Shown here: piece by piece, positions 334-29,065 of the stretch
Layout of the letters: each line of letters starts with the position of its first letter
How positions within the stretch are numbered: position 1 is the stretch's first letter
DNA from: an uncultured Clostridia bacterium
Lineage (GTDB): Bacteria > Bacillota > Clostridia > Oscillospirales > JAAYOS01
Assembly: GCA_947630675.1 (NCBI GenBank)
Contig: CANRIN010000018.1
Location: 1-32,486, forward strand
DNA: 32,486 nucleotides
Direction of reading: 5' to 3'
Notes under the pieces: generated by a model
Told to the model about the DNA's origin: nothing
The model's database searches: none
Seen by the model: only the letters and a program-made list of their open reading frames with translations
Position numbers and translations under genes: made by a program

Positions 334-853
334 CCCTTACGGGCTAGTCGGCGCGAAATGTGCTCGGGCAATGAATTGCCCTGCGCACCCTTTCGCGCCG
401 AGACTTTCACTTGAAATTGCGCAGGCGCAATTTCAAGTGAAGCTGTCGGATAGGGCGAAGCCCTACCGACAGCATGCGCTCCGCTACGCGCCGAGTTTTC
501 CGCCTTCGGCGGAAAATCGACGCAATTCCCAAACGGTCAGTAGACCGTTTGGGAGCCCTTCCGATTGAAATGCTCGGGGCAAACACGAGGGCGCCCACCA
601 ATTCTTCATCGGAACATATTCAGCCCTCGTGAGCTTTACCCGCTTCGCGGGCAAAGCCGGACTCTGTGCAGAATTGCCTGCGCGAAGTTAGCGGCTCTGC
701 CGCTAACTTCAACCGCTGCGAACCGCGAGGGCGCGAGCCAATTCCTTATCCAACATTTAACAGCTCTCGCTCGCAATATTCGCTTTGCGAATATTGCCCG
801 ATATTGAACTAATTAGAATGCGGGAGCGCCTGCGGCGGCGAACTCTGCGAGGC
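328..853. repeat. Palindrome-rich intergenic locus A
   Basis: This spacer of over 500 bp between two convergent genes has no convincing gene and is built of consecutive hairpins. They include GACTAGCCC/GGGCTAGTC (328-349), CGGCGCGAAA/TTTCGCGCCG enclosing GGGCAAT/ATTGCCC (349-400), a perfect 17-bp-arm palindrome with a 2-nt loop (406-441), a stem at 442-473 around GAA, TTTTCCGCC/GGCGGAAAA near 495-515, CCCAAACGGTC/GACCGTTTGGG near 524-550, GAAGTTAGCGGC/GCCGCTAACTTC near 687-712, and CAATATTCGC/GCGAATATTG near 774-797. It ends in the motif GAACTCTGCGAGGC (840-853), which recurs in loci B, C and E. The same modules appear with altered but still complementary arms at the other loci. Short ORFs here look like by-products of the repeats. 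Confidence 0.85.
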
Positions 854-2698: not shown

Positions 2699-2727
2699 TT
2701 GTGTATTGCGGCGGCATTTGGTATAAT
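2699..2727 (+). promoter_or_regulatory. Promoter upstream of structured element B
   Basis: TTGTGT (2699-2704), a 17-bp spacer and a perfect TATAAT (2722-2727) on the plus strand. The first hairpin of element B starts at the very next base. Transcription from here would run through the element into the yqeG-nfo genes, giving a leader of roughly 430 nt. Confidence 0.6.
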
Positions 2728-3075
2728 ATAGTCGCAAAGCGACTATCGCGGGAAATCGCGCTCGCTGCGCTCGCTTACCAATTTCCCGCGAGAAGTTCAC
2801 TTGGAATTGCGTTTGCGCAATTCCAAGTGAAGCTGTCGGACAAGGCAAAGCCTTGCCGACAGCAAGCGCTCCGCTTCGCGCCTCGACGGCTTCGCCGTCT
2901 TCGACGCGCACTACGCGAGAAGTATTTTCGGCGACGTACACGCCGCCGCCGAAAATGATTTGACTTTATTTCGCCGCTAAAGCGGCGAAACTCTGCGAGG
3001 CGTCAGTAGGGACGTCGGCGCTCTGCGCCGTCCGCCTTACAATGCACTCGAGGTCGGGCAATATTCGCAAAGCGG
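2728..3075 (+). repeat. Structured leader element B (composite palindromes)
   Basis: An uninterrupted series of hairpins follows the promoter: ATAGTCGC/GCGACTAT (2728-2746), CGCGGGAAAT/ATTTCCCGCG (2747-2756 with 2781-2790), a 16-bp stem at 2796-2831, GCTGTCGG-A-CAAGGC/GCCTTG-C-CGACAGC (2832-2863), GACGGC/GCCGTC (2885-2899), a TATTTTCGGCG/CGCCGAAAAT-type stem around 2932-2957, and TTTCGCCGC(T)/(A)GCGGCGAAA (2969-2990) ending in ACTCTGCGAGGC. Element D, on the opposite strand at 13196-13381, has the same module order with compensatory arm changes, but lacks the 2796-2831 stem and the ACTCTGCGAGGC end. A shorter stem of the GACGTCGGCGC type follows at 3011-3031, then a CAATATTCGC remnant also present in A. 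Confidence 0.8.
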
Positions 3076-6333: not shown

Positions 6334-6900
6334 ATGGAGCTGAAAAAGCAGATATCCTACGTCAAGGGGCTTGTCGAGGGCATGACTCTCGACGCCGATA
6401 CTCCGGAGCACAAGCTGATAGCCGCGCTTATCGACGTTGTCGGCGGGCTCGAGGAGCAGATGGAGACCCTTGAGGAGCGCGTGAAGGCGCTCCAGGACAC
6501 CGTCGACCTGATGGACGAGTCGGTAGACGACATCTTTGAGATACTGGCGGACGACGACGAGGACGAAGAGGACGACGGATGCGGCTGCGGTCACTGCCAT
6601 CACCATCACGACGGCGATGAGGACGAGGATGGCGAGGATGAGTGCGGCTGCGGCCATTGCCACCATCACCATCACGGCGATGAAGAGGATGACGACGAAC
6701 TGCCCGAGCTCGGGCTTGAGCTTGCCTGCCCGGTCTGCGGCGAGAAGATAGAGCTTACAGAGGAGATGTGGCGCGACCGCGTCTTTGAGTGCCCGCACTG
6801 CGGCGACCGGCTTGAGCTCGACTTCGGCGAGGACGACCATCACCATCATCATCACCACGACGAGGACGCCGAGGGTGAGGATACCCACGAGGAAGAGTAA
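6334..6900 (+). CDS. CD1247-type protein with His-rich clusters and zinc ribbon
   Basis: A 188-residue protein beginning at ATG 6334; the earlier GTG at 6313 overlaps efp, and no better ribosome site supports it. Residues 1-70 resemble the CD1247 N-terminal domain of Clostridia (a short helical segment, then a coiled coil with ETLEERVKALQDTVD). Residues 72-122 are an acidic linker holding two near-identical metal-binding-like blocks, CGCGHCHHHH (83-92) and CGCGHCHHHHH (104-114). A zinc ribbon CPVC...CPHC (C132, C135, C153, C156) follows, then seven consecutive His (169-175). The gap to efp is 10 nt, so the pair is probably cotranscribed. The function is unknown; zinc, nickel or copper buffering is inference from composition alone. 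Confidence 0.8.
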   Translation: MELKKQISYVKGLVEGMTLDADTPEHKLIAALIDVVGGLEEQMETLEERVKALQDTVDLMDESVDDIFEILADDDEDEEDDGCGCGHCHHHHDGDEDEDGEDECGCGHCHHHHHGDEEDDDELPELGLELACPVCGEKIELTEEMWRDRVFECPHCGDRLELDFGEDDHHHHHHHDEDAEGEDTHEEE

Positions 6901-8555: not shown

Positions 8556-9005
8556 AATTCGGCGCGAAATGTGCTCGGGCAATAAATTGCCCTGCGCACC
8601 CTTTCGCAATTCCCAAACGCTCCGATGGAGCGTTTGGGAGCCCTTCCGATTGAAATGCTCGCCCCGAATGAATCGGGGCTCCGCAAATTCGGCGCTTTGC
8701 GCCGAATTTGACCGCGCGAACCGGCGCGGAACCGCCTTCGGCGGAAAATCGACGCACGTTCCGCGATAGGTGTAAATTTCGCCGCTCTCCGGTGCGTATA
8801 AAGTCGGGACGTCGGCGCGAAGCGCCGAGGTCTGATGCGCCCGGTAGAAAGTTACGGTGCGTAACAAGTCGGCGGGCGCATTGACGCCGGAAAAAACGGA
8901 TTTGACTCTATTTCGCGCCAAAGGCGCGAAACTCTGCGAGGCGGTCGGCGCGAAATGTGCTCGCTTCGCTGCGCACCCTTTCGCGCCGAGGCCGTCGGCA
9001 GAGTT
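8556..9005. repeat. Palindrome-rich intergenic locus C
   Basis: A stretch between the convergent GH43 and BlaR1-like genes with no credible gene. It contains two copies of the GGCGCGAAATGTGCTCG module (near 8560 and 8945), CCCAAACGCTCC/GGAGCGTTTGGG (near 8614-8640) followed by TTCCGATTGAAATGCTCG as in locus A, GCCCCGA/TCGGGGC (near 8662-8682), AAATTCGGCGC/GCGCCGAATTT (8685-8710), CCGCC/GGCGG followed by AAAATCGACGCA as in A, a roughly 90-bp module at 8801-8892 shared with locus E, and TTTCGCGCC/GGCGCGAAA (8911-8931) with the ACTCTGCGAGGC tail (8931-8942). GGTGTAAATTTCGCCG near 8769 is found inverted in element D. Confidence 0.85.
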
Positions 9006-13155: not shown

Positions 13156-13195
13156 TTTGAGTACCTCCAATTCGATATTTGCAAAGAGCGGAAAA

Positions 13196-13381
13196 ATTCT
13201 AATCGGTAAATTTCGGCGGCAAGTACGGCGAAATTTACACCTCTCGCGTAGCGCGCGTCGAAAGCGGCAAAGCCGCTGAGGCGCGAAGCGGAGCGTTGCC
13301 GTCGGCAGGGCTTCGCCCTGTACGACGGCCTCGCGGCAAATGGGTAAGCGAGCGAAGCGAGCGCGATTTGCCGCGACTATT
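13196..13381 (-). repeat. Structured leader element D (inverted partner of B)
   Basis: Read on the minus strand, this begins one base after the TATAAT box, with AATAGTCGCGGCAAAT, and follows the module order of element B. The stems are CGCGGCAAAT/ATTTGCCGCG (13332-13341 with 13366-13375) enclosing a CGCTCGCTTCGCTCGC spacer, GCCGTCG-GCAGGGC type (13298-13329), AGCGGC/GCCGCT (13263-13277), and GTAAATTTCG/CGAAATTTAC (13206-13238). The 16-bp-arm stem of B is absent. Arm differences from B are compensated in the opposite arm: GGGAAAT/ATTTCCC becomes GGCAAAT/ATTTGCC, and GACGGC/GCCGTC becomes AGCGGC/GCCGCT. It fills most of the leader of the VOC-mannosyltransferase operon. Confidence 0.8.
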
Positions 13382-13410
13382 ATTATACTACATATCGTCC
13401 TGCATAACAA
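13382..13410 (-). promoter_or_regulatory. Promoter upstream of element D
   Basis: Minus strand: TTGTTA (13410-13405), a 17-bp spacer, then a perfect TATAAT (13387-13382), immediately followed by element D, exactly as at locus B. Confidence 0.65.
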
Positions 13411-16791: not shown

Positions 16792-16809
16792 AATTTCTTA
16801 AAAGGACAA

Positions 16810-16846
16810 AAATCGGCGGGATGCAACGCATCCCGCCGATTTTATT
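16810..16846. terminator. Bidirectional terminator between convergent genes
   Basis: A perfect 15-bp stem, AAATCGGCGGGATGC/GCATCCCGCCGATTT (16810-16842), with an AAC loop. T-rich sequence follows on the plus strand and A-rich sequence precedes it, so it can serve both the ATPase-like gene and the sensor-like gene. Confidence 0.85.
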
Positions 16847-16859
16847 TATATGCTGCGGA

Positions 16860-28662: not shown

Positions 28663-28668
28663 CGCTTT

Positions 28669-28928
28669 TCGCGGGAAATCGCGCTCGCTTCGCAATTCCC
28701 AAACAGTCAGTAGACCGTTTGGGATTCTGATGCGCCCGGTAGAGGGTCGGATGCGGTATAGGTTCGAGGACCCCAGGATCAGCAGAAAGTCGGTACGTCG
28801 GCGCTTTGCGCCGAGGTCTTATGCGCCCGGTAGGGGTTAAGCGCGGTATATGTCGGCGGGCGCATTGTCGCCGGAAATTTACCGATTGGACTTATTTCGC
28901 CGCCTTCGGCGGCGAAACTCTGCGAGGC
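28669..28928. repeat. Palindrome-rich intergenic locus E
   Basis: The 3' spacer of ddl. It starts with the CGCGGGAAATCGCGCTCGCT block also found in B and D, then CCCAAACAGTC/GACCGTTTGGG (near 28697-28722, one arm mismatch), a TCTGATGCGCCCGGTAG block, a roughly 90-bp module (28786-28876) also in C with ACGTCGGCGC/GCGCCGAGGT and long-range ATGCGCCC/GGGCGCAT pairing, and TTTCGCCGCC/GGCGGCGAAA (28895-28917) with the ACTCTGCGAGGC tail. No gene is seen in it. Confidence 0.85.
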
Positions 28929-28937
28929 ATGAACGAT

Positions 28938-28979
28938 AAAAGCACACCGCGAAACGAGAGTTTTGCGGTGTGCTTTTTG
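28938..28979. terminator. Bidirectional terminator after ddl
   Basis: A long stem, AAAAGCACACCGCGAAAC/GTTTTGCGGTGTGCTTTT, with GAGA loop (one G-T pair), followed by TT on the plus strand and A-rich on the other side. It can close both the ddl operon and the minus-strand MerR operon. Confidence 0.85.
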
Positions 28980-29065
28980 TTGAAAGATGTGTCTTAAATT
29001 CTCGACCTTGCCTTATGCTCTTGGTCAAAGGCACCGTTTGCTTATTGAGGTGTTGTCCCGCAAAG

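What the first reader, a model, noticed from the sequence alone, without database searches (positions are those of the whole stretch)
2722..3001. Covarying structured leader element directly behind a promoter, shared with 13196-13387
Elements B (+) and D (-) each start within a base or so of a TATAAT -10 box and run about 190-280 nt through the leaders of two unrelated operons. The module order is the same. Arms differ in compensating ways: GGGAAAT/ATTTCCC versus GGCAAAT/ATTTGCC, GACGGC/GCCGTC versus AGCGGC/GCCGCT, and CAAGGC/GCCTTG versus CAGGGC/GCCCTG. Some unpaired or loop-flanking sequences are conserved (CGCGCTCGCT, CTCCGCTTCGCGCC). Such covariation points to selection on RNA or cruciform structure, not just on sequence. 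It could be an undescribed cis-regulatory or mobile structured RNA carrying its own promoter.
Basis: partly seen in the sequence, partly recalled or inferred. Interest (0 to 1): 0.75.

Follow-up and report, generated by a model that had tools for sequence, protein, structure and literature searches.

The report
Mosaic hairpin repeat, not regulatory leader
The two "leader elements" are copies of a high-copy family of mobile, hairpin-built repeats scattered between genes of certain gut Clostridia; two of them landed just behind promoters that were already there, so they are unlikely to be a dedicated RNA switch, although the family itself appears to be undescribed.

Summary
B (2746-3001 +) and D (about 13376-13190 -) share modules, and their stems covary strongly. 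The interpretation mostly fails. B and D are two of at least 130 copies in this rabbit-gut Clostridia genome. Similar numbers occur in three of four sampled congeners, and related copies in other families of the order, one represented by Vescimonas (Oscillospiraceae), but in no sampled genome of other orders. The -10 boxes belong to the host: at the D site three relatives keep the promoter and lack the element. Repeats avoid divergent intergenic regions and hug gene 3' ends. Stems vary as whole hairpin "cassettes", strictly Watson-Crick, with no G.U excess (15 G.T, 17 A.C; tRNA control 23 to 0). Cassettes in neighbouring hairpins assort independently. Best reading: a new family of interspersed mosaic palindromic DNA repeats, like BIME/BOX in style, whose hairpins are exchanged between copies and kept palindromic by DNA-level processes such as template switching. 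No REP-type (Y1) transposase was found in this genus. The route of spread is unknown; RNA effects at gene 3' ends are not excluded.

The parts
2722..2727 (+). host -10 box (TATAAT); not part of the element
   Evidence: conserved in G001, G003 and G004 in front of different modules
2729..2745 (+). small hairpin TAGTCGC-AAA-GCGACTA: inverted copy of the promoter-proximal sequence, absent in G004
   Evidence: G004 reads TATAATATAG|TCGCGGG; same arrangement at an unrelated promoter in G001 (L114:12162)
2746..2792 (+). module M1: outer palindrome TCGCGGGAAAT/ATTTCCCGCGA with an exchangeable inner hairpin
   Evidence: inner hairpin replaced in orthologous copies
2796..2831 (+). module M2: hairpin TTCACTTGGAATTGCG/CGCAATTCCAAGTGAA
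   Evidence: self-palindrome; absent from D
2832..2863 (+). module M3: hairpin GCTGTCGG-a-CAAGGC/GCCTTG-CCGACAGC with conserved bulged A
   Evidence: 8 of its 14 pairs change on both sides
2866..2911 (+). module M4: conserved linker GCGCTCCGCTTCGCGCC plus hairpin cassette
   Evidence: alignment A1, pair counts
2912..2956 (+). module M5: linker (consensus CGCTCCGCGAGAGGT) plus 12-pair hairpin with conserved loop; conserved in other families of the order
2957..3001 (+). module M6: linker GATTTGACTTTA, hairpin TTTCGCCGC/GCGGCGAAA and end box ACTCTGCGAGGC
   Evidence: commonest right-hand end of alignments to B; conserved in other families
   Evidence: matches at 8802-8827, 28788-28813, 781-823 and in many other loci
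13190..13376 (-). element D: M1, M3, M4, M5 and a cut-off M6
   Evidence: missing in three relatives that keep the flanks
13382..13387 (-). host -10 box upstream of D; not part of the element
   Evidence: present in element-free G001, G003 and G004
347..850 (.). mosaic of the same system between convergent genes
   Evidence: different modules at the orthologous place in G001 and G003
8558..8990 (.). mosaic of the same system between convergent genes
28667..28930 (.). mosaic of the same system between convergent genes; most of it absent from G001

Best explanation
B and D are copies of a high-copy, non-coding, interspersed mosaic palindromic repeat. SHOWN: each copy is a string of hairpin cassettes joined by conserved linkers; copies lie almost only between genes, mostly at gene 3' ends; module content turns over at orthologous sites; D is an insertion just downstream of a promoter that was already there. 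INFERRED: hairpin cassettes are swapped between copies by recombination or gene conversion at the linkers. INFERRED: each hairpin stays perfectly palindromic through DNA-level copying of one arm from the other (replication template switching) and/or a need for the hairpin in single-stranded DNA. INFERRED: in B and D the element is simply transcribed as a long structured 5' leader, with any effect on the downstream genes (HAD phosphatase; glyoxalase-like protein) incidental.
For: At least 130, 105, 129 and 130 copies in four congeners, none in the fifth. About 27% (own, a sample chosen around hits) and 12% (G001) of the intergenic DNA examined is repeat, against about 1 bp per kb of gene. D site empty in G001/G003/G004 with promoter and both flanks kept. 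B site carries different modules in G001/G003. Convergent against divergent intergenic regions with repeats: 20/50 vs 5/54 and 19/79 vs 7/82, pooled p = 1e-5. Block edge within 30 bp of a gene 3' end in 69 of 156 cases, of a 5' end in 5 of 94. Watson-Crick 1942, G.T 15, A.C 17 in A1; across families 711, 9, 15; tRNA control 275, 23, 0. Paired changes between orthologues: 20 of 415 pairs in repeat hairpins against 2 of 626 in other hairpins at similar flank divergence, clustered as whole-stem swaps. Alleles of different hairpins show no linkage (p 0.07-0.93) except within one hairpin (p 0.001). Template switching is published as a source of one-step compensatory changes (PMC8794818).
Against: Element orientation in tandem intergenic regions is biased towards the direction of transcription, 40 to 14, p = 0.0005; this could mean an RNA-level role or a biased mode of insertion. 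Linkers and the M5 loop are conserved across families, so something more than palindromicity is selected or copied. No enzyme of mobility was identified. Template switching was not observed directly; most paired changes seen between orthologues come from only five hairpins. Paralogous copies are not independent, so covariation cells count sequences rather than events.
Confidence: 0.78

Rival explanations
1. A structured cis-regulatory RNA leader (or mobile regulatory RNA) that brings its own promoter.
For: Strong covariation and stable folding; B and D directly follow -10 boxes; exact TATAAT within 25 bp pointing into a repeat block 8 times, outward 0 times, though 4 of the 8 are the one B site in four species.
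Against: Promoter is native and present without the element. With one mismatch allowed the promoter signal vanishes, 23 to 20. Only a minority of copies are in leaders. G.U is not enriched. The two genes downstream are unrelated and nothing ties the family to a pathway.
Confidence: 0.07
2. A REP/REPIN-like non-autonomous transposon whose hairpins are recognised as single-stranded DNA by a transposase; stem conservation reflects that recognition.
For: High copy number, extragenic, imperfect hairpins with a conserved bulged A and conserved linkers; new insertion D; strand bias.
Against: No Y1 transposase in any of the four element-rich congeners, and in only 8 of 18 element-bearing genomes of other families. 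No short conserved end tag or clear target duplication at the few empty sites seen. Another, unsearched transposase class is possible.
Confidence: 0.25
3. The family acts in RNA at gene 3' ends, as a transcript-stabilising or terminating structure, and is maintained for that; B and D are misplaced copies.
For: Location within 30 bp of 3' ends; orientation with transcription 40 to 14; very stable hairpins; many blocks abut terminators.
Against: No T-runs: the terminator scan of B finds three sites, all on the opposite strand, and host terminators are often already present beside the element. Many 3' ends lack it, and G002 lacks it wholly. G.U is nearly absent.
Confidence: 0.2

Closest known systems
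BOX elements of Streptococcus pneumoniae (PMC3049150)
   Same: Modular, variable length, strong secondary structure, favour regions downstream of genes, slow current insertion, can be co-transcribed with neighbours.
   Different: No sequence relation tested or expected; here several different hairpin cassettes with conserved linkers instead of boxA-(boxB)n-boxC; GC-rich host; cassettes vary as covarying alleles.
REP/BIME and REPINs with RAYT transposases (PMC2817692, PMC3116915, PMC3733652)
   Same: High-copy extragenic palindromes in mosaic arrangements; imperfect hairpins.
   Different: No RAYT (Y1) gene in the genus; unit is about 190-260 nt with up to six hairpins; no GTAG tag was noticed, but tags were not searched systematically.
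Mobile double-hairpin / repetitive hairpin-forming elements of mitochondrial DNA (PMC2800124, citing Paquin et al. 2000)
   Same: Mobile hairpin elements in intergenic DNA, patchy among close relatives, mechanism unsettled, no clear target duplication.
   Different: Organellar, shorter, unrelated sequence.
Palindromic candidate structured RNAs of human microbiomes (PMC8040213)
   Same: Palindromic motifs detected as structured RNA by comparative genomics; that paper itself suggests some are terminators or REP.
   Different: The motifs shown as examples are mostly from Bacteroidetes; the supplementary motif list could not be checked, so an overlap with this family is possible.

Membership tests
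Interspersed mosaic palindromic repeat (general kind) | many dispersed extragenic copies | tested here: met
   at least 130 copies; nearly all repeat bases lie outside genes
Interspersed mosaic palindromic repeat (general kind) | modules combined in different orders and subsets | tested here: met
Interspersed mosaic palindromic repeat (general kind) | presence/absence difference at an orthologous site | tested here: met
   D site; also window 28663-29065 and 16792-16859
REP/REPIN with RAYT | RAYT (IS200/IS605-type Y1) gene in the genome | tested here: not met
   none in G000, G001, G003, G004
REP/REPIN with RAYT | 20-40 bp palindrome tagged with GTAG or CGTC at one end | not tested
   no tag noticed at the edges of the modules listed here; not searched for systematically
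BOX | boxA-(boxB)n-boxC organisation | not tested
   module order M1 to M6 described; no comparison with BOX sequences was run
Cis-regulatory structured RNA (riboswitch/leader) | lies in 5' leaders, mainly of functionally related genes | tested here: not met
   12 of 118 placed copies in divergent regions; genes behind B and D unrelated
Cis-regulatory structured RNA (riboswitch/leader) | covarying stems with tolerated G.U pairs | tested here: inconclusive
   covariation met; G.U not above A.C
Any Rfam family | match above gathering score | tested here: not met
MITE | terminal inverted repeats and fixed target-site duplication | tested here: inconclusive
   too few clean empty sites; D shows none; one copy in G003 is flanked by a 20-bp direct repeat of the promoter
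Mobile or regulatory RNA | transcription of B and D from the -10 box | not testable with these tools
   no RNA-seq available

The most novel reading that the evidence does not exclude
A transposase-independent mobile DNA family that spreads and diversifies by replication template switching: hairpin cassettes jump between copies, arms are re-copied from each other, and host DNA next to the insertion point is turned into an inverted duplication (for example hairpins centred on stop codons, or TAGTCGC-AAA-GCGACTA behind promoters). If so, covariation of the kind used to prove RNA structure would here be produced by the mutation process itself.
Probability: 0.22. Interest if true: 0.8.

Novelty: new variant of a known kind. 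Interest (0 to 1): 0.5.

Why it matters
It is a clear natural example of highly significant stem covariation that should not be read as a regulatory RNA, because whole palindromic cassettes are exchanged at DNA level. The family appears undescribed, makes up a notable share of intergenic DNA in one rabbit-gut genus, and recurs patchily in other families of its order, so it matters for annotation, for RNA-motif screens, and as a system for testing how palindromic repeats spread without an obvious transposase.

Tried and rejected
Own promoter: rejected, native. RAYT mobilisation in this genus: no Y1 gene; mixed in other families. Known RNA family: none. Terminator role of B: no T-tracts on its strand. 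Phage carriage: only two exact viral-contig matches and weak phage hits. Plasmid search: no useful match beyond Vescimonas fastidiosa. Palindrome at block edges as a hallmark of insertion: enriched (40 of 250 edges against 49 of 1185 random places), but many are ordinary intrinsic terminators and orthologues often share them, so kept only as a lead. Strand against GC skew: element on the G-rich strand 69 to 40, but gene strand explains it equally well, 72 to 37. A systematic screen for clean empty sites gave few (3) because most sites are shared and modules differ. The held paper library gave no description of the family; not exhaustive.

Full report
What was checked. B and D were read on both strands. 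Rfam has no match above threshold.

Two of many. A search of the window's own genome gave 61 matches to B and 43 to D. A covariance model built from 48 copies found 130 copies in this genome and 105, 129 and 130 in three congeners (at most 150 candidates were scored per genome, so these are minima), and none in a fourth congener. In the order, 32 of 295 sampled genomes have matches, concentrated in two other families and often at high copy. A shorter model of the conserved end (R2) matched only genomes of the same order in samples of 341 (class) and 348 (phylum) genomes. One named carrier is Vescimonas fastidiosa (Oscillospiraceae), with 22 places on one replicon; the best of these is annotated with no feature.

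Anatomy. The units are hairpins M1 to M6 joined by conserved linkers. In the alignment of 48 copies the linkers are nearly invariant while stems occur as a few discrete alleles, for example four for M5. M1 is itself a palindrome with an exchangeable inner hairpin. The last two hairpins and their linkers, ending in ACTCTGCGAGG, are recognisable in other families of the order.

Covariation. It is real and very strong in the genus and across families. It is also unusual for RNA. Pairs are Watson-Crick almost without exception: 1942 WC, 15 G.T and 17 A.C in the genus, 711, 9 and 15 across families. In tRNAs from the same loci the figures are 275, 23 and 0 (14 tRNAs only). The antisense strand folds better than the sense strand. 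Alleles of different hairpins assort independently, while outer and inner parts of one hairpin do not. Between orthologous sites, paired changes affect 20 of 415 stem pairs in repeats and 2 of 626 in other hairpins, at similar flank divergence, and arrive as whole-stem swaps into alleles seen elsewhere in the genome. That is the mark of cassette exchange. The perfect pairing of each allele still needs a cause; template switching between arms is a published one (PMC8794818), selection on single-stranded DNA another.

Place in the genome. Repeats are almost confined to intergenic DNA. They are commonest between convergent genes and rarest between divergent ones (pooled odds ratio 4.5, p = 1e-5). 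Their edges lie within 30 bp of a gene 3' end in 69 of 156 cases but of a 5' end in only 5 of 94. In tandem regions, 40 copies point with transcription and 14 against, and 42 of 54 lie nearer to the upstream stop codon. The sample of own-genome loci was chosen around B-like hits, so its absolute densities are biased; G001, taken mostly as continuous stretches, shows the same ordering.

B and D at promoters. At the D site three relatives have the same promoter and the same flanks but only a few bases in place of the element. At the B site all four species have the promoter; G004 has the same M1, while G001 and G003 have another module family there. TATAATAGYCGC also occurs as a native promoter start without any element, which gives the M1 end (TCGCGG) a short stretch of matching sequence. 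Promoter-adjacent copies exist at a handful of sites, so B and D are not unique, but this is a minority setting. B precedes a gene for a HAD-family hydrolase, D a glyoxalase-family protein, with no common theme.

Spread. New insertions are rare and most sites are shared: of 17 own repeat-bearing regions with a G001 orthologue, 13 also have repeats there. Module content changes faster. No Y1 transposase is present in the element-rich congeners, and presence is mixed elsewhere. One G003 copy is flanked by two copies of a 20-bp promoter stretch, and several copies sit beside inverted duplications of host sequence, some centred on stop codons. These fit replication template switching, but this is inference.

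Verdict. Observation confirmed. The promoter-bearing regulatory RNA is not supported. The element is best described as a new family of mosaic palindromic DNA repeats of an otherwise known kind, with unusual cassette-like covariation. Its route of spread and any 3'-end RNA effect remain open.

Noticed in passing
L082:18452-18743: In G003 an element is flanked on both sides by the same 20-bp promoter stretch TGCTATAATAGCCGCAGAGC, and the second copy is preceded by a new hairpin TAGCATATCGC-GGA-GCGATATGCTA; it looks like a duplication made on insertion.
   Followed up: partly
window 334-360; L028:7110-7130; L017:11229-11240; L126:1388-1400: Elements directly after a stop codon with the last bases of the gene repeated in inverted form, so that the stop codon lies within or beside the loop of a small palindrome.
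   Followed up: partly
L023:16520-17458: A separate, longer repeat family (about 0.9 kb, arrays of GCGGGGAAGCCCCGC-type hairpins), absent from the orthologous 72-bp spacer in G001; related blocks in L095 and L123.
   Followed up: no
L017:17368-18044: A 226-bp insertion right after an intrinsic terminator, absent in G001, starting TGTGTCGCATGATCC; no Rfam family above threshold.
   Followed up: partly
window 16792-16859: The orthologous spacer in G003 carries a 207-bp insertion of other mosaic modules; the window, G001 and G004 are empty there.
   Followed up: partly
window 6549-6881: Tandem 63-nt repeats inside a gene (6334-6900) encoding a His/Asp/Glu-rich, Cys-containing stretch, possibly metal binding.
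   Followed up: no
L015:8684-10105: A gene whose 3' end runs into an element copy (93 bp of repeat inside the predicted reading frame).
   Followed up: no
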